Assembly (NCBI GenBank): GCA_025450375.1
Contig: JANWHO010000175.1
Location: forward strand, 1-6,094
DNA from: Chloroflexota bacterium
GTDB lineage: Bacteria > Chloroflexota > UBA5177 > JANWHV01
Direction of reading: 5' to 3'
Length of the DNA: 6,094 nt
The stretch's first letter is position 1, and each line of letters opens with the position of its first letter. Under the pieces are notes generated by a model. It had not been told where the DNA came from. It did no database searches and saw only the letters and a list, made by a program, of their open reading frames with translations. Both the position numbers and the translations under genes were made by a program. Below are positions 1 to 6,094 of this stretch, one piece after another.

Positions 1-143
1 ACGGTCAGTGGCGTATATCGGTGATCGCGCAGATAGTCCATCTGCGCGACGAACGTTTCAGGGCGCACGGAGTACCTTCTGAATTGAGGCGTGGTCGTAT
101 CGGAGACACTGTGATAGAGAAGAATGGGCACTGGATGGGTCAC
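1..143 (-). CDS. Polysaccharide deacetylase-like protein, N-terminal fragment (runs off the left edge)
   Basis: Reading leftwards from a GTG at 143-141, an open frame of 47 codons continues to the window edge. It begins MTHPVPILLYHSVSD and continues with VRPETFVAQMDYLRDH and RYTPLT. The pattern of a hydrophobic strand ending in LLYHSVSD, then a segment like 'sPe.F..QM.yLr..gY.plt', is the typical opening of NodB-type (carbohydrate esterase 4) deacetylases, which remove N-acetyl or O-acetyl groups from glycans. The catalytic Asp-His-His metal motifs would lie beyond the edge, so activity cannot be judged. The GTG overlaps the TGA of the upstream tandem glycosyltransferase by four bases (GTGA, 143-140), and a GGAGG ribosome site lies just before it, so start and coupling are well supported. 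No signal peptide is visible, so the protein may act in the cytoplasm. Next to glycosyltransferases it probably trims or modifies the same glycan. Confidence 0.8.
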   Translation of the reverse strand, partial: MTHPVPILLYHSVSDTTTPQFRRYSVRPETFVAQMDYLRDHRYTPLT

Positions 144-2899
144 GATTCCTCCACCTGCTCGGCTCGCGACGCCGCCGACCCAGGCTCTGGTCCGGCCCAT
201 GTCGACGAGGAATTCAGCTTTCTTAGGTGGCGCGTCTGATACCGCCCACGGATATAGGCGAGCGGACCATACAGCATACCCTTTACCTCAAGCATGTTGA
301 GCTCCCTTGGATAATCGCGGGGCTTCCTTGAATTCTTGGGCGAGCGCGCACTGAGCGCGTAAAACAGGCCCAGGGGAACTCTGACGGTCACCTCAAGGAG
401 GAGCGCCGGCCTGTCGATCACGCATTTCGTGAGATAGGCCGTCAGACCCACGCCATAGCCATAGACTTGTTTCCGGAATCCGGCGTACTCTTGGCGATGT
501 AAATGATGGACGATTGCCCCCGGCTCATAGACCAACTGGTGACCGGCCATGATAACCTGGAAGAAAGCGGCAAGATCATCACCGCCCACCCCTGGACTTC
601 CCGCCCCCAGCCCCGGATCGAAACCGCCCATGGCGCGCAAGGCCGAGGTCCGAAAGGCCATGTTCGCGCCCGATCCAAACGCCCCAGCGGCATAGGGAAA
701 CAGCCGATTCTTCGCGCGGTTCTCGGTCAGATCAAAGATCCGGCGGGCGCATCCCTTGCCGAATCCGCCATACTGCTCAATCCACATCTGGACCTGTGAC
801 TGCAATTCCCTGGGGAAGATCAGTCCCGTTACGCAGGCTACGTTCGGGCCAACGGAAAAGCCCATGACAAGCTGGGCAAGCCAATAGGGATCCGCTAACA
901 CGTCGTCGTCGGTAAAGGCAACAATCTCCCCCCGGACCTCCCTTAGTCCTCGATTGTGGGCGCACCCAAGGCCAGGCCGGTCTTCACGGACATAGCGTAT
1001 TCGCGTCTCATCACCGAAGACGTCCTTGATGAGGTCGGCGGTCACGCACGAACTCGGGGCATTGTCGACCACGATCACCTCAAAGTTGGGATAGTGCAAC
1101 GACAAGAGGGAGGGCAGACACCGAGCCAGATCCTCGGGCCGATTGTGCGTGGCCACGACGATGCTTACAAAGGGAGCATTGGATAATACCGCATCGCGTT
1201 CTCGCACGCATCGTGGCGGCGCGGCGGTAGGAAGCCCACCCCCGTCAAGCGTCGAGGGCTCCGGCAATCCGTCCGCCCGCATGTGCGCCCGGATCTCCGC
1301 TTCCAACGCGCTCCAGAGCTCGCGTCCGAGGTCCCCAGGGCTCAAGCCATCCCGCTTCAGGCGCAACGCAACCACGCCGATCGGCTGGGTGTGCAGGCGC
1401 ACGAGAGTCCATGCTCGCTCGAATACCTGGCCCGTCGCGCTCTCGACCGCTAGAAGAGCCGGCAATGGTCCGCCGATTTCTACTTCCAGAACCCGCACCG
1501 GCCGAAAATCCGGCTGAGTGTCCTTCATGACCGGCGGCACTGACTGCCTTGCCAACCTTCGCGCTTCCGCGCGGCCATTCAAATAAGCAAACGGACCGTA
1601 GAGCATACCCTTCAGCTCGACCATGGTCAGTTCGGGCGGGTAGTCGTTGGTCTTCCTGACGTTTCTCGACGCCCGCCTACTCCAGACGAGACGAAGCGCG
1701 GCGGGAATCCAGAAGGGAACGTGCATCAGACGAGTCGGCTTGTTGATGAGGCACTTGGTCAGGTAGGCGGTGAGCCCCGAGCCATACCCATACATTTGTT
1801 TCCGCAATCCAAGGTAGTCCCGACGATGGAGGTGATGGATAAGGGCGCCAGGATGGTACACCAGCGTGTGCCCGTTCATGATGACCTGAAAGAACGCCGC
1901 CAGATCCTCCCCACCGAGCGCGGGACTCCCGGCGCCCAAGGCTGGATCGAAGCCGCCCATGGCGCGCAGCACCGAGGCTCGGAAGGCCATATTGGCGCCG
2001 GTCCCGAATACACCGGCCGAATAGGGATACAGGCGACTGCTTAAGCGTGCCTCCGTGAGGTTGTACATGCGCCCAGCATACCCTTTGCTGAATCCGCTAA
2101 TCTGCTCGAACCACAACTGGACTTGGGTCTCTAACTCTATTGGGAAGGCCATACCGGTGACGCAGGCAACCTGTTCGTTCCCGGCAAAGGGCTTTGCCAA
2201 TTCGGCGAGCCAGTACCGGTCGACCACTACGTCGTCGTCGGTAAAGGCAATTATCTCGCCCTGGACCTCCCGCAGTCCTCGGTTGCGGGCCACTCCCAAC
2301 CCAGGCCGGTCCTCGCGGACATAGCGCACCCACGGTACATCGCCGTAGTTCACCCTGATCAGATCGCGCGTCGCGTCGGAGCTTGGGGCATTGTCTACCA
2401 CGATGATCTCAAAATGAGGATAGTTCAGGGCCAGAAGAGAATCCAAGCAGGTAGCCATGCCCGCCGGTCGATCGCGGGTGGCCACCACCACGCTCACCAG
2501 AGGCGCATCGGCCAGAACCACTTCGCGCTCGCGGACGCACCTTGGAGTCGTACCATTGGGCAAGCCTCCCGCCCCAAGCTCGGCCGGTTCCGGCAGGCCG
2601 TCCAGGCGCGCGTGGGCGCGAATCTCCTCGCGCAACCGTCTCCAGATCTCGCGCGCCTGGTCCTCGGCGCTCATGCCGTTCGGTCCCAGATGCAACTCGA
2701 TGGCGCCGAGTGGGCATGAGTGCAAACGCACCAGGGCCAGCGCTCGCTCGTATGTGTGACCCGTCGCCTCGTCGCGCGACGCGAGATCAGGCAAAGGGTG
2801 GCCGATTTCTAGTTCCAGGGTTCGCCATGGCTTGAAAGTCGATACTTGGAGTTCATGCGGTGGAGTTTGGTCTCTGCTAGTCAAGGTTCGCGCCTTCAT
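140..2899 (-). CDS. Tandem-duplicated family 2 glycosyltransferase (two complete GT-A units in one 919-residue protein)
   Basis: The protein should transfer sugars from nucleotide-activated donors to a growing glycan. It holds two copies of one architecture: an N-terminal domain of about 110 residues (24-131 and 467-574), then a GT-A domain (about 132-385 and 575-828), then a partly hydrophobic C-terminal tail. Each GT domain has a VVVAT or IVVAT first strand, VVDNAPSS, the metal-binding TDDD motif (220-223; 663-666), GANMAFR, GGFDP, an acidic pair (E331-D332; D774-D775) and HHLHR (355-359; 798-802). Family 2 catalytic positions therefore look intact in both halves. The copies align without gaps at offset 443; I counted 174 identities in 260 positions of the GT core. 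Single-unit relatives are around 430-450 residues, so this is a real doubling. Residues 394-408 and 837-850 could touch the membrane. The ATG overlaps the previous gene's stop (ATGA, 2899-2896) with no clear Shine-Dalgarno, suggesting coupled translation. Donor and acceptor cannot be told from sequence. Confidence 0.93.
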   Translation of the reverse strand: MKARTLTSRDQTPPHELQVSTFKPWRTLELEIGHPLPDLASRDEATGHTYERALALVRLHSCPLGAIELHLGPNGMSAEDQAREIWRRLREEIRAHARLDGLPEPAELGAGGLPNGTTPRCVREREVVLADAPLVSVVVATRDRPAGMATCLDSLLALNYPHFEIIVVDNAPSSDATRDLIRVNYGDVPWVRYVREDRPGLGVARNRGLREVQGEIIAFTDDDVVVDRYWLAELAKPFAGNEQVACVTGMAFPIELETQVQLWFEQISGFSKGYAGRMYNLTEARLSSRLYPYSAGVFGTGANMAFRASVLRAMGGFDPALGAGSPALGGEDLAAFFQVIMNGHTLVYHPGALIHHLHRRDYLGLRKQMYGYGSGLTAYLTKCLINKPTRLMHVPFWIPAALRLVWSRRASRNVRKTNDYPPELTMVELKGMLYGPFAYLNGRAEARRLARQSVPPVMKDTQPDFRPVRVLEVEIGGPLPALLAVESATGQVFERAWTLVRLHTQPIGVVALRLKRDGLSPGDLGRELWSALEAEIRAHMRADGLPEPSTLDGGGLPTAAPPRCVRERDAVLSNAPFVSIVVATHNRPEDLARCLPSLLSLHYPNFEVIVVDNAPSSCVTADLIKDVFGDETRIRYVREDRPGLGCAHNRGLREVRGEIVAFTDDDVLADPYWLAQLVMGFSVGPNVACVTGLIFPRELQSQVQMWIEQYGGFGKGCARRIFDLTENRAKNRLFPYAAGAFGSGANMAFRTSALRAMGGFDPGLGAGSPGVGGDDLAAFFQVIMAGHQLVYEPGAIVHHLHRQEYAGFRKQVYGYGVGLTAYLTKCVIDRPALLLEVTVRVPLGLFYALSARSPKNSRKPRDYPRELNMLEVKGMLYGPLAYIRGRYQTRHLRKLNSSSTWAGPEPGSAASRAEQVEES
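148..152 (-). promoter_or_regulatory. Ribosome binding site of the deacetylase-like gene
   Basis: The minus strand reads GGAGG here, four bases before the GTG at 143. It lies inside the last codons of the tandem glycosyltransferase gene. With the GTGA overlap it fixes the start of the deacetylase-like gene and points to coupled translation. Confidence 0.7.
221..1501 (-). repeat. Second unit of the internal duplication (residues 467-893 of the tandem glycosyltransferase)
   Basis: This is the partner of the unit at 1550-2830. It keeps TDDD, GANMAFR, GGFDP and HHLHR but has GGDD where the first unit has GGED. It starts after a short linker (about residues 451-466). It is followed by a tail of some 26 Ser-, Gly- and Glu-rich residues with no equivalent in the first unit. 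Confidence 0.9.
1550..2830 (-). repeat. First unit of the internal duplication (residues 24-450 of the tandem glycosyltransferase)
   Basis: This unit covers the extra N-terminal domain, the GT-A domain and the C-terminal tail ending near LKGMLYGPFAYLNGR. It matches the second unit position by position at an offset of 1329 bases (443 codons) with no insertion or deletion that I could find. The longest exact DNA match I noticed is 22 bases, 2229-2250 against 900-921, over the TDDD motif. Confidence 0.9.
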
Positions 2900-3927
2900 G
2901 CTTGATCGGATAACCAGGGTGCGCCGACATCGCCGTCGACCCGCGTTTCCGAGGGTTGGACCAGGCTGGTGAATTGGCTCGGTGTCCCGTGTTTCCGGCG
3001 CGCGAGCCGATGAGAAGCCTTGCCCGCCGCGTAACCCGCCGAGGTCACCGCCAAGCCGGTGACAATAGCCCCAGCTCTCCCAAGCCCCGTGAGATCACCT
3101 TTCATGGTATCCGCCAAGCCCCGGACGACGCCGCGCGGCAGGGTCGAAAAGGTGTAGAGTCGCTCCGATGCCAGACCGTCTTTCGCGCCGACGAACTCCG
3201 CTACCTGGGCCTTGGAGAGCCCTTCGGCATAACAGCGCGCGCGAAAGTAGGCCCAGCGGGCCCGGTGCGTGGGCACGCGGTGCCGCACCTGGGCCCGCGG
3301 TTCATAGAGTAGGGTCGTTCGCGGCCATTGCTTCCGGACCCGGATGCACAGTTCAGTCTCCTCACATCCCAACGGCCGGGTACCTAACCGCCCCATCCCG
3401 CTTCGGAAACCGCCGACCACCGCGAACACCTCTCGGCGGAACGACATGTTGGCGCCGATCATGTTCCGCACTGGGCTGGCATGGCGCGGCATCCCGAGGT
3501 ACGTGCAGCCTACCACCCAATGAAACTCCGCCGGGAGCCAGCGCGGCCGCGTGGCGGACCACGCGGGCTCTATCGCGCCCCCCACCCCGCTGACCAGGGG
3601 ATCGGCATATCCTGCCACCAGGTGACGCAGCCAATCAGGCGCCGCCACCGCGTCATCATCGAGGAAGGCAACCACGTCCCCTCGCGCGGTCGCGATGCCG
3701 GTATTTCGCGCTCCGGATAGGCCGCGCGCTTCACAATTCTCTACCACCACGACGCCTGGCAAGGCCGTACGGGCGCGCTGGGCCAAGGCTGGGTTGTGAT
3801 CGATGACCACGACAATTTCCATGGCTGGCGTACCCTGTGCTCCGACCGACTCGACGGCGGCGCTCAGATCGTCCCAGCGATCCTCGGTATAGGCGCAGAT
3901 GATCACGGAAAGAGAGAGAGACCTCAT
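2896..3927 (-). CDS. Family 2 glycosyltransferase (GT-A fold), 343 residues
   Basis: This is a predicted sugar transferase acting at the cytoplasmic face. Counting from the preferred ATG at 3927, the protein starts MRSLSLSVIICAYTEDRW, the usual first strand of family 2 enzymes. It continues with an IVVVIDHNP strand, RGLSGARNTG, the metal-binding FLDDDA motif (about 88-93), EFHWVVGC, VRN..GANMSFRR, GGF, a GCEETELC segment with the probable catalytic acidic pair (about 188-193), and RHRVP. A hydrophobic stretch near 284-301, followed by basic residues, could anchor it to the membrane. The EF.W.VGC and VRN..GAN/GSN pattern resembles the archaeal AglG-type glucuronosyltransferases of N-glycan assembly. 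That comparison is from memory, so I do not assign a substrate. A longer reading from TTG at 3945 adds six residues (MGHTSK). Neither start has a good Shine-Dalgarno. The TGA overlaps the next gene's ATG. Confidence 0.9.
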   Translation of the reverse strand: MRSLSLSVIICAYTEDRWDDLSAAVESVGAQGTPAMEIVVVIDHNPALAQRARTALPGVVVVENCEARGLSGARNTGIATARGDVVAFLDDDAVAAPDWLRHLVAGYADPLVSGVGGAIEPAWSATRPRWLPAEFHWVVGCTYLGMPRHASPVRNMIGANMSFRREVFAVVGGFRSGMGRLGTRPLGCEETELCIRVRKQWPRTTLLYEPRAQVRHRVPTHRARWAYFRARCYAEGLSKAQVAEFVGAKDGLASERLYTFSTLPRGVVRGLADTMKGDLTGLGRAGAIVTGLAVTSAGYAAGKASHRLARRKHGTPSQFTSLVQPSETRVDGDVGAPWLSDQA

Positions 3928-4081
3928 CTTACTAGTATGTCCCAATGATCGTCTAATTTAGAGCTCAAGGCGAATGTACCGTATCAACGTCAAGTATACG
4001 TCCGGCTTCGGAGCCCTACATCCCCTAGAATGAGTATTGCCTTCTTATGGTCGCCTGGTAGGTAAAGGAGGAATGAGATAT
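3928..4081. other. Gap between the enolase-family gene and the glycosyltransferase genes
   Basis: This is the only substantial non-coding stretch in the window and is richer in A+T than the genes around it. On the minus strand it holds a TTGACG (3993-3988) and a TAAATT (3960-3955), but they are 27 bases apart, too far for a standard sigma-70 pair. A promoter for the glycosyltransferase unit is likely here on position alone and is not demonstrated. A 7-base direct repeat (GAATGAG on the plus strand) occurs at 4028-4034 and 4071-4077. No hairpin followed by a T run was found after the enolase stop, so read-through remains possible. Confidence 0.4.
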
Positions 4082-5389
4082 TTATGTGTAGGCAAGCCCG
4101 CTAGGGCCGCCCGCGTACGGCGTATCCAGCCCCACTTCCTCCTCAATCCGCAGGAGCCGATTGTACTTGGCCAGCCGCTCTGACCGCGCTACCGACCCTA
4201 CCTTGATCTGGCCCGCTCCGCTACCCACTGCCAGGTCGGCCAGCCAATCATCCTCAGTCTCGCCCGATCGAGCCGAAATCACCGCTCCGTAACCGTGCGT
4301 CCGCGCCAACTGGAGCGTCTCCAGGGTCCGGCTCAGGGTGCCAATCTGATTCACCTTGATCAATACGCTGTTGGCTACCCCCGCGTCGATCCCCTTCCGC
4401 AAGCGCCCGGCGTTGGTGACGAAGAGATCATCGCCAACCAGACGCGCTCGGGAACCCAGCCGAACGGTTAATCGGCGCCATCCCTCCCAATCGTCCTCGG
4501 CCAGCGGATCCTCGATCGAGATCAGAGGATAGCGGCGCAGCCACTCCTCCATCAGGTCGGTTATCTCGCCCGCGTCCAGCACTCGCGGTCCCCTTTCAGC
4601 GTGGGCAAGATGGTAGCGGCCATCCTGGAAGAATCGGCTGGATGCCACGTCGATCGCCAGCGATACATCACTCCCTGGGCGCAGTCCGGCCTGCTCGATG
4701 GCCCGCGTGACCAATGCCAGAGCCTCCTCATTGCTGGACAGCGCGGGACCAAAGCCACCCTCATCGCCGACTAGCGGCGGATGCCCACCTCGGATTAGCA
4801 AGTCGCGGAGGGTCCAATAGACGCGCGTCACCATTTCCAGAGCGGCAAAATAGGTGGGAGCCCCCACGGGTACCGCCAGCACATCCTGGATATCGAGATT
4901 CCGGCCCGCGTGCGCCCCGCCGGAAATCATGTTGACCATGGGGAGCGGCAGCATCGGCGCGGCGCCCGCCAGCTTGGCCAGATAAGCATGGAGCGGCAGG
5001 CCCTCGGCGGCGGCGGCAGCGCGGGCGGCAGCCAGGGAGACGGCGAGAATCGCGTTCGCGCCCAGACGGCCCAGGTTCTCGGTCCCATCCGCCGCCGCGA
5101 GCCTCCGATCCACCGCCTCCTGGTCCCGCGCATCCAATCCAAGCACGGCGGGACGGCACACCTCGCGCAGATTTCGTACCGCGCCCAGTACGCCTCGCCC
5201 TGCCCAGAGCGGACTGTCGGTATCGCGCAACTCCACTGCCTCGTGGCGTCCGGTGGAAGCCCCGGAGGGGACGGACGCCCGGCCCAGGGCGCCACCCGCG
5301 AGCTTCACATCGGCTTCCACGGTGGGATTCGCCCGTGAGTCGAGAATCTGACGGGCGGAGACCTCGGTGATCCGGAACTGGTCGCTCAT
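4082..5389 (-). CDS. eno: Enolase-family protein with altered active site (435 residues)
   Basis: Length and overall sequence match enolase (phosphopyruvate hydratase: 2-phosphoglycerate to phosphoenolpyruvate), and I give the symbol by family only. Retained: PSGASTG loop (41-47), H160, the GDEGG acid E210, metal ligands D247, E293 and D320, the catalytic base K345, phosphate-binding R374-S375, and K396. Changed: the active-site His of the usual SHRSGE motif is Ala (A373, in ISARSGETED); the Glu of IQE is Asp (D169); DSRG is DSRA (A20); NGG is SGG (S156); ASEF is SSRF (R252); IKTG is IKVG (V397). In yeast enolase the corresponding His373 and Glu168 are active-site residues, so normal activity is doubtful. 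The protein may be a paralogue acting on a related phosphorylated acid, or a weak enolase. I recall similar SARSGE sequences in other high-GC bacteria but cannot verify this. Its ATG overlaps the kinase stop (ATGA) after a strong ribosome site. Confidence 0.93.
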   Translation of the reverse strand: MSDQFRITEVSARQILDSRANPTVEADVKLAGGALGRASVPSGASTGRHEAVELRDTDSPLWAGRGVLGAVRNLREVCRPAVLGLDARDQEAVDRRLAAADGTENLGRLGANAILAVSLAAARAAAAAEGLPLHAYLAKLAGAAPMLPLPMVNMISGGAHAGRNLDIQDVLAVPVGAPTYFAALEMVTRVYWTLRDLLIRGGHPPLVGDEGGFGPALSSNEEALALVTRAIEQAGLRPGSDVSLAIDVASSRFFQDGRYHLAHAERGPRVLDAGEITDLMEEWLRRYPLISIEDPLAEDDWEGWRRLTVRLGSRARLVGDDLFVTNAGRLRKGIDAGVANSVLIKVNQIGTLSRTLETLQLARTHGYGAVISARSGETEDDWLADLAVGSGAGQIKVGSVARSERLAKYNRLLRIEEEVGLDTPYAGGPSGLAYT

Positions 5390-6094
5390 GGTCCCTCCTG
5401 GGATGAAAATAGCTCGGAAAGCCCTCGTAGCTCCCCGCGGAGCACGGCCGCCCCTAAAGCGCGGGCCCGAAGACGCCCGCCAGGGCTCAAGTATTCGGCG
5501 GGCGATTTGCCGTCCGCCCGCGCTACGAGCAGCGCGCCGGCCTGCCGCAAGGCCCCCGCTTCCACCGCGGCCGCCGGACGCCTGTCCAGCACACGCATGT
5601 AGGCGTCGAGAAAGGCGCGGGCGCAGGCGGCATAGCGATCCGCCGCCTTGGGACGATAGATCGCCTTGAGCGCCAGATGCGTGAGGAGAAACGCGGTATC
5701 AAAATCGGGGTTTCCCCAATGCACCACCTCGAAATCGAGGGCCATTGCGGCATGATCGTGGATCATCAGGTTCTTGGGACTGAAATCGCCGTGGACCAGG
5801 GTCCGGCGATCCTCGCGCATGGCCTGGGCTCCAGCGCGCAGCAAAGCGGCCAACGCCAGATCGCTCCGCTGTTCGGCTGCCCGCGCCGCATGTTCGTGGT
5901 AGGGATCGAGGCGGAGTTGGTCGAATAGGCTCAGGTCGCCGTAATGAGCGGCGAGTCGGGGATCATCCCAGGCGGCGGCGTGCAAGCGGCCCAGCAGCCC
6001 GCCCACCGCGGCGGCGTCCCGCCGATCCGCGTCACCGTGGAGAAGAAGCTGCTTCCAGGGCAGCGCGAACTCGGAAGCACTGGTCATGCCCACG
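5386..6094 (-). CDS. APH-family small-molecule phosphotransferase, 3' part (runs off the right edge)
   Basis: The visible 235 residues are the C-lobe of a kinase of the aminoglycoside phosphotransferase/choline kinase/methylthioribose kinase fold, which moves phosphate from ATP to a hydroxyl group. The catalytic loop HGDFSPKN (101-108) matches the HxDxxxxN Brenner motif, with D103 the likely base and N108 a metal ligand. ALDFE (118-122) supplies the second metal-binding Asp, D120. The helical continuation (GNPDFDTAFLLTHLALKA) is typical of the family. The frame is still open at the edge, and the ATP-binding N-lobe, about 100 residues, is absent, so the true start lies beyond 6094. The GTG at 6093 and ATG at 6087 are internal codons. 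The visible text GMTSASEF..PWKQLLL would fit the hinge region after the N-lobe. It is coupled to the enolase-family gene by a four-base overlap, so its product may feed that protein. Antibiotic resistance is not implied. Confidence 0.85.
   Translation of the reverse strand, partial: VGMTSASEFALPWKQLLLHGDADRRDAAAVGGLLGRLHAAAWDDPRLAAHYGDLSLFDQLRLDPYHEHAARAAEQRSDLALAALLRAGAQAMREDRRTLVHGDFSPKNLMIHDHAAMALDFEVVHWGNPDFDTAFLLTHLALKAIYRPKAADRYAACARAFLDAYMRVLDRRPAAAVEAGALRQAGALLVARADGKSPAEYLSPGGRLRARALGAAVLRGELRGLSELFSSQEGP
5393..5399 (-). promoter_or_regulatory. Ribosome binding site of the enolase-family gene
   Basis: The minus strand reads AGGAGGG just before the ATG at 5389, inside the last codons of the upstream kinase. 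It fixes the enolase start at 5389 and supports coupled translation across the ATGA overlap (5389-5386). Confidence 0.75.

What the first reader, a model, noticed from the sequence alone, without database searches (positions are those of the whole stretch)
4271..4273. Enolase-family protein lacks the active-site histidine
The sequence reads ISARSGETED where enolases have S-H-R-S-G-E-T; the GCT codon at 4273-4271 gives A373. Neighbouring R374 and S375, the base K345, K396 and all three metal ligands are kept, so this is not random decay. In yeast enolase, His373 is an active-site residue whose loss strongly reduces activity. A fold that keeps metal, lysine base and phosphate grip but loses this His is a candidate for a changed reaction or substrate. 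There is precedent for enolase relatives in specialised metabolism, such as the carboxyphosphonoenolpyruvate synthase of phosphinothricin pathways, but I see no sign of that pathway here.
Basis: partly seen in the sequence, partly recalled or inferred. Interest (0 to 1): 0.7.

Follow-up and report, generated by a model that had tools for sequence, protein, structure and literature searches.

The report
Histidine-less enolase paralog with partner kinase
The gene is annotated as the sugar-burning enzyme enolase, but it belongs to a separate, widespread branch of enolase relatives with a rebuilt active site and, as a rule, its own partner kinase, so it probably processes a different, still unknown compound.

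Summary
In detail: the enolase-like ORF (5389-4082, minus) has Ala (GCT, 4273-4271) where enolases have the active-site His. In 122 aligned rows (44 SARSGE, 78 SHRSGE) these four columns separate the types without overlap. A tree made without three of them puts all 50 SARSGE-type rows on one side of one branch, SH-aLRT 100. I searched 36 of 40 SARSGE genomes; all 36 also hold an ordinary SHRSGE enolase. The paralog has a partner: a methylthioribose-kinase-like kinase, overlapping it by 4 bases here, lies within 1 kb in 24 of 40 SARSGE and 0 of 41 SHRSGE loci, and elsewhere in 15 of the other 16 genomes. The pair occurs in several bacterial phyla and in haloarchaea, often among catabolic genes. 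In E. coli enolase a C3-OH mimic is held by Glu167, Lys392 and His369; two of these three are changed here. Best reading: the kinase phosphorylates a 2-hydroxy acid and this protein eliminates a group at C3 of something other than 2-phosphoglycerate. Substrate unknown; no activity tested.

The parts
4082..5389 (-). enolase-like protein, 435 aa, SARSGE type
   Evidence: NCBIfam TIGR01060 eno 550 bits against cut-off 300; Pfam Enolase_N and Enolase_C; clade of its own
4271..4273 (-). codon GCT = Ala373, where canonical enolases have the active-site His
   Evidence: the type was defined by this column: A in 44 rows, H in 78 rows
4883..4885 (-). codon GAT = Asp169, where canonical enolases have catalytic Glu (yeast E168)
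   Evidence: D in 44 of 44 SARSGE rows, E in 78 of 78 SHRSGE rows
4199..4201 (-). codon GTA = Val397 after Lys396; canonical rows have T, S or A
4922..4924 (-). codon TCC = Ser156 (ISGG); canonical rows have Asn (NGG), other clade members Ser or Gly
5386..6093 (-). partner kinase, APH / methylthioribose-kinase-like, N-terminal part cut off by the window end; its TGA overlaps the enolase-like ATG by 4 bases
   Evidence: Pfam APH 41.6 bits; aligned with 13 kinases of other SARSGE loci; association counts
2896..3945 (-). downstream family-2 glycosyltransferase; no evidence that it belongs to the kinase/enolase pair
140..2899 (-). downstream protein of two family-2 glycosyltransferase modules; no evidence that it belongs to the pair

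Best explanation
It is a paralog of enolase, from a distinct SARSGE clade, that works as the second step of a two-enzyme module. Shown: the separate clade, coexistence with a true enolase in the relatives tested, and a near-constant partner kinase. Inferred: the kinase phosphorylates the 2-hydroxyl of a 2-hydroxy acid (in some clusters a D-2-hydroxyacid dehydrogenase gene lies nearby and could supply it). The enolase-like protein binds carboxylate and phosphate through the kept metals, Arg374 and Ser375, takes the C2 proton with Lys345, and expels a group from C3. Because residues around the C3 hydroxyl are changed and made smaller (Glu to Asp, His to Ala), the substrate probably carries a larger group at C3, or another leaving group, than 2-phosphoglycerate. 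The product would be phosphoenolpyruvate or a C3-substituted analog.
For: One clade, SH-aLRT 100, with columns 169, 373 and 397 removed. Four columns that separate the types without overlap (156, 169, 373, 397) and further changes in the same loops, for example 162 D to G, 171 M to L, 214 A to G. Base, metal ligands, Arg374, Ser375, Lys396, loop His and general-acid Glu are kept. In E. coli enolase the inhibitor hydroxyl that mimics the C3-OH hydrogen-bonds Glu167, Lys392 and His369 (PMC6863902, passages), which by motif correspond to D169, K396 and A373 here. 36 of 36 searched SARSGE genomes (of 40) also have a SHRSGE enolase. Kinase within 1 kb in 24 of 40 SARSGE and 0 of 41 SHRSGE loci (Fisher p 3e-10); elsewhere in the genome in 15 of the remaining 16; in 2 of 28 SHRSGE genomes, both of which proved to hold a SARSGE gene next to the kinase. 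Independent of the loci that built the kinase profile: 10 of 11 later loci found by the motif alone. Catabolic settings: L015 with aldo/keto reductase, 2-hydroxyacid dehydrogenase, class I aldolase and FGGY kinase; L080 with a GntP permease; L031 with a sodium/solute symporter; L190 and L196 with 2-hydroxyacid dehydrogenase and PEP carboxylase.
Against: No substrate or activity is shown. Contacts of the C3 hydroxyl are not described alike everywhere: for M. tuberculosis enolase Glu163 and Lys386 are listed as contacts of the carboxylate and His154 as contact of the hydroxyl (PMC10619443, passages); if that holds, the Glu-to-Asp change bears on the carboxylate and the loop His, which is kept here, bears on the C3-OH. 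Neighbourhoods differ between phyla and many planctomycete ones tell nothing, so no single substrate is implied. The 2-hydroxyacid dehydrogenase was found in 9 of 64 SARSGE loci scanned, and in 1 of 41 SHRSGE loci. The general-acid Glu is kept, so loss of water remains possible. Both profile libraries used still call it enolase. In 1 of 40 SARSGE genomes (L078) no kinase was found.
Confidence: 0.52

Rival explanations
1. It is an ordinary 2-phosphoglycerate dehydratase, a catabolic isozyme; the kinase is an unrecognised D-glycerate 2-kinase, so that hydroxypyruvate is taken to D-glycerate, 2-phosphoglycerate and PEP, as in the serine cycle.
For: The residues for proton removal and the general-acid Glu are kept. 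L190 and L196 carry PEP carboxylase, a 2-hydroxyacid dehydrogenase and the kinase in a row. The 2-hydroxyacid dehydrogenase of L015 matches phosphoglycerate dehydrogenase and glyoxylate reductase models, below their cut-offs.
Against: All 36 searched genomes already have a normal enolase, and the Glu-to-Asp change accompanies His-to-Ala without exception in 44 rows, which an isozyme for the same substrate does not explain.
Confidence: 0.24
2. It is an epimerase or racemase: with departure of the C3 group disabled, the enolate formed by Lys345 is reprotonated from the other face, for example turning a 2-phospho-L-acid into the D form for the normal enolase.
For: The changes lie near the C3 side while the base and metals are kept (PMC6863902, passages); a normal enolase is present in the 36 genomes tested.
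Against: Speculative; no new base was recognised for the other face; the general-acid Glu is conserved.
Confidence: 0.08
3. It is no longer an enzyme of small molecules but a structural or regulatory protein.
For: Two catalytic residues are changed.
Against: Metal ligands, base, phosphate site and catalytic loops are conserved across the clade, and the partner is a kinase with conserved HGD-type and D-[FY]-E motifs.
Confidence: 0.05
4. Decay, or a sequencing error.
For: None found.
Against: Ala in 116 of 118 readable best homologs and one clade.
Confidence: 0.01

Closest known systems
Enolase (phosphopyruvate hydratase, TIGR01060)
   Same: Domains, metal ligands, Lys345 base, Arg374/Ser375, Lys396, loop His, general-acid Glu; 550 bits against cut-off 300; 50-55% identity to the 40 canonical enolases of the genome scan, against 49-59% to its SARSGE proteins
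   Different: His373 to Ala, Glu168 to Asp, Asn to Ser/Gly before GG, Thr to Val/Ile after Lys396; separate clade; a normal enolase besides it in the 36 genomes tested; partner kinase
S-methyl-5-thioribose kinase MtnK (TIGR01767), for the partner
   Same: Best NCBIfam match of three partner kinases and a PDB match of one (58.7 bits; 2olc)
   Different: Far below the curated cut-off of 275 bits; tied to a SARSGE enolase; no methionine salvage genes recognised in the loci read
Carboxyphosphonoenolpyruvate (CPEP) synthase of phosphinothricin biosynthesis (recalled, not compared)
   Same: An enolase homolog recruited to another reaction (recalled)
   Different: No phosphonate genes recognised in the loci read; no CPEP synthase sequence was available to align
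Serine-cycle segment: hydroxypyruvate reductase, glycerate 2-kinase, enolase, PEP carboxylase (recalled)
   Same: Same kinds of step are encoded in L190 and L196
   Different: Different kinase family, and an enolase paralog with a changed active site
Mandelate-racemase-type members of the enolase superfamily, as expanded in SAR202 (PMC6946804, passages)
   Same: Proton abstraction next to a carboxylate
   Different: A different branch: the SARSGE proteins are of the enolase family proper (Enolase_N and Enolase_C)

Membership tests
Enolase (phosphopyruvate hydratase) | Enolase_N and Enolase_C domains and score above the curated cut-off | tested here: met
Enolase (phosphopyruvate hydratase) | Metal ligands and the proton-abstracting Lys (yeast D246, E295, D320, K345) | tested here: met
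Enolase (phosphopyruvate hydratase) | Active-site His373 and Glu168 | tested here: not met
   Ala and Asp
Enolase (phosphopyruvate hydratase) | Groups with canonical enolases in a tree | tested here: not met
   separated by one branch, SH-aLRT 100, 81 rows
Enolase (phosphopyruvate hydratase) | Activity with 2-phosphoglycerate | not testable with these tools
   needs an assay
Methylthioribose kinase (partner) | Score above the TIGR01767 cut-off of 275 bits | tested here: not met
   58.7, 53.2 and 54 bits for three partner kinases from other loci; the window's own fragment gave no TIGR01767 match
CPEP synthase | Sequence relation to a CPEP synthase and a phosphonate gene cluster | not tested
   no CPEP synthase sequence was at hand and no search for phosphonate genes was made; none was recognised by eye in the loci read

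The most novel reading that the evidence does not exclude
The pair is an unrecognised ATP-driven way to break a bond at C3 of 2-hydroxy acids: a kinase puts phosphate on the 2-hydroxyl and the enolase-like enzyme eliminates a group other than hydroxide (sulfite, an alkoxide, another heteroatom group), or hydroxide from a branched or longer sugar acid, giving PEP or a substituted PEP. It would serve in different catabolic pathways across bacteria and haloarchaea with different groups at C3.
Probability: 0.34. Interest if true: 0.82.

Novelty: new variant of a known kind. Interest (0 to 1): 0.64.

Why it matters
Enolase is treated as one of the most uniform enzymes of life, and annotation pipelines name these proteins phosphopyruvate hydratase or enolase. 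A second clade with a changed active site and a partner kinase would mean a missed metabolic step in many bacteria and some archaea, wrong glycolysis annotations where it is found, and an example of enolase itself (not its distant superfamily) changing substrate. The kinase/enolase pair makes the question directly testable with two purified proteins.

Tried and rejected
Viral collection: one hit, an ordinary SHRSGET enolase, L001. Decay and error: rejected. Sulfolactate with release of sulfite, O-methylated glycerate with release of methanol, and aryl compounds were considered for the C3 group from cluster contents (L176 with SDR, aldose epimerase and an IlvD/Edd dehydratase; L192 with a homoprotocatechuate-dioxygenase-like protein and an FAH hydrolase); none is shown and none is claimed. 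The IlvD/Edd gene of L176 lies on the other strand and may be a mere neighbour. Literature: nine searches. Five aimed at CPEP synthase or a described enolase variant and two at a pathway; from their listings, and from passages of PMC6302742 and PMC6946804 (whose SAR202 enolase paralogs are nearly all of the mandelate racemase family), I found no description of this clade or pair. Two were for enolase mechanism. The library holds open-licence papers only. An apparent enolase motif in L221, near an unlinked kinase, is a chance TRRSGET, not an enolase. No structure was predicted.

Full report
Observation. The minus-strand ORF 5389-4082 encodes 435 aa. Residue 373, codon GCT at 4273-4271, is Ala in VISARSGETED, where enolases have SHRSGE. 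TIGR01060 (eno) gives 550 bits against a cut-off of 300, and Pfam finds both enolase domains. The base Lys345, Arg374, Ser375, Lys396, the metal ligands D247, E293 and D320, the SGAST loop, the HAG-loop His and the DEGG general-acid Glu are kept. The yeast numbers and roles of these residues are recalled except where a paper is cited.

It is a family trait. Of the 120 listed best of 7991 scored homologs, the triplet at 169/373/397 is D/A/I in 86, D/A/V in 30, D/G/V in 1 and E/H/T in 1; two end before it. With the one viral locus L001 this gave 40 SARSGET and 41 SHRSGET proteins. The types were sorted by residue 373; the other columns were not used for that. In an alignment of 122 rows (44 A rows: the window, 40 loci and three repeated copies; 78 H rows: 41 loci and 37 second copies) columns 156, 169, 373 and 397 separate the types without overlap, and others in the same loops nearly so. 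The same holds in the 81 rows of the tree, where column 156 is Ser or Gly in the clade and Asn outside. At 373 the clade shows Ala or, once, Gly in the rows seen.

A clade. A tree of 81 rows (50 SARSGE type, one of them with Gly; 31 SHRSGE type), made without columns 169, 373 and 397, needs a single change between the types; that branch has SH-aLRT 100, while shuffled labels need about 25 changes. It is a quick tree without bootstrap, and the deep order inside the clade is weak. The window lies with metagenome proteins at up to 82% identity, one of them labelled Chloroflexota.

A paralog. The window's genome is not held. Of the 40 SARSGE genomes I searched 36, and all 36 have further enolase matches. 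I fetched 37 second copies from these 36 genomes, and all 37 read QE and SHRSGET. So in the genomes tested the SARSGE protein is not the only enolase.

A partner. In the window the gene upstream, 6093-5386, is an APH-family kinase cut by the window end. Its stop and the enolase-like start overlap by four bases. A profile of 14 such kinases (the window's and 13 from SARSGE loci) was run over six frames: a kinase lies within 1 kb in 24 of 40 SARSGE loci, the 13 of the profile among them, and in 0 of 41 SHRSGE loci (Fisher p 3e-10). Flanks are alike: 37 of 40 and 36 of 41 have at least 1 kb upstream of the frame. Of the other 16 SARSGE genomes, 15 hold the kinase elsewhere (one in two pieces, one with a stop inside); the exception is the MAG of L078. 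Of 28 SHRSGE genomes taken as a control, 2 have the kinase; in both, a SARSGE gene lies directly beside it. The other 26 show no SARSGE gene: 6 by enolase search, which read SHRSGET only, and 20 by DNA pattern, which would miss variants such as SGRSGE. Loci found by pattern alone repeat this. Of 301 Chloroflexota-sample genomes 11 matched and of 296 Bacteroidota-sample genomes 9 matched; 10 and 7 of these proved to be enolases, the known genomes G006, G010 and G031 included. Of the 14 new ones 11 were fetched with longer flanks (L173-L183): 10 have the kinase adjacent, and in the eleventh the contig ends 161 bases upstream of the frame. In plasmids 31 records hold the kinase; I fetched 11 of them, and all 11 carry a SARSGE enolase in the stretch, adjacent or up to about 6 kb away. 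They are from Haladaptatus and Halomarina (Archaea), Methylobacterium, Rhizobium (two), Pararhizobium, Sinorhizobium, Azospirillum, Cupriavidus, Rhodococcus and Persicobacter. A twelfth record, Sphingobium, came from the enolase search and has the kinase adjacent. The kinase's best NCBIfam model is S-methyl-5-thioribose kinase, at 53-59 bits against a cut-off of 275 for three kinases tested.

Surroundings. L015: ABC permeases (by eye), aldo/keto reductase, kinase, SARSGE, 2-hydroxyacid dehydrogenase, class I (DhnA-type) aldolase, FGGY kinase. L173: SDR, two 2-hydroxyacid dehydrogenases, a GntR-like regulator and transporter genes, the last two by eye. L080: GntP permease, kinase, SARSGE, MtaA/CmuA-like protein. 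L031, and by eye L040: sodium/solute symporter, kinase, SARSGE. L176: kinase and SARSGE, with an aldose epimerase and an SDR upstream and an IlvD/Edd dehydratase between on the other strand. Haloarchaea: kinase, SARSGE, cupin, with mandelate racemase-type, SDR and ilvC-annotated genes around. Rhizobium: PEP carboxylase, 2-hydroxyacid dehydrogenase, kinase, and opposite them SARSGE, a VOC protein, a cupin and branched-chain-type ABC genes. In Cupriavidus the VOC protein resembles homoprotocatechuate 2,3-dioxygenase and an FAH hydrolase is near. Where informative the settings look catabolic, but they differ. Over 105 loci (64 SARSGE, of which L184 repeats the place of L076; 41 SHRSGE) the 2-hydroxyacid dehydrogenase was found in 9 and 1 and the FAH hydrolase in 5 and 0 (the profiles were built from some of these loci). 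Many planctomycete neighbourhoods tell nothing. In the window itself the downstream genes are glycosyltransferases, with no shown link.

Mechanism. In enolase a Lys removes the C2 proton (Lys335 in the M. tuberculosis enzyme, PMC10619443, passages), and Glu211 as general acid helps hydroxide leave in the second step (PMC4450660, passages). In E. coli enolase the hydroxyl of SF2312, analogous to the C3-OH of 2-phosphoglycerate, hydrogen-bonds Glu167, Lys392 and His369 (PMC6863902, passages). By motif these are D169, K396 and A373 here; no superposition was made. Taken together, the first half of the reaction looks intact while the side near C3 is changed and smaller. With a partner kinase the simplest reading is a phosphorylated 2-hydroxy acid with a different or larger C3 group, converted to PEP or a substituted PEP. 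PEP carboxylase beside the kinase in two Rhizobium plasmids hints at PEP, but fits the ordinary glycerate route equally well. Nothing here shows activity.

Known or not. Searches for CPEP synthase with enolase, enolase paralogs with active-site changes, enolase with APH kinase, sulfolactate with enolase and kinase, and enolase with methylthioribose kinase and 2-hydroxyacid dehydrogenase (listings), with passages of two papers, returned no description of this clade or pair in the open-licence library. That is no proof of absence elsewhere. I file it as a new variant of a known kind: the domains and the first half-reaction are enolase's, but two defining tests (active-site His/Glu and grouping with canonical enolases) are not met.

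Noticed in passing
140-2899 (-): A 919-aa protein with two family-2 glycosyltransferase stretches in tandem, nearest to the mycofactocin glycosyltransferase model MftF but below its cut-off (251.6 against 280 bits).
   Followed up: no
L185, L186 (haloarchaeal plasmids): SARSGE enolase and kinase in Archaea, followed by a similar cupin of 124-125 aa, in islands with several mandelate-racemase-type genes and an ilvC-annotated gene.
   Followed up: partly
Haladaptatus plasmid NZ_CP119783.1, 337216-338436: A second enolase-like match on the same plasmid, motif not read.
   Followed up: no
L188, L190, L192, L196: A shared plasmid cluster in Rhizobium, Pararhizobium and Cupriavidus: 2-hydroxyacid dehydrogenase, kinase, SARSGE enolase, VOC protein (homoprotocatechuate-dioxygenase-like in L192), alcohol dehydrogenase; PEP carboxylase annotated in Rhizobium. 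It looks like a catabolic pathway that I could not name.
   Followed up: partly
P0028: A clade member with SGRSGET: Gly instead of Ala at 373, which fits a need for a small residue.
   Followed up: no
JGI-sourced rows: Many relatives of the partner kinase are named 5-methylthioribose kinase, although three partner kinases tested score far below that model's cut-off.
   Followed up: partly
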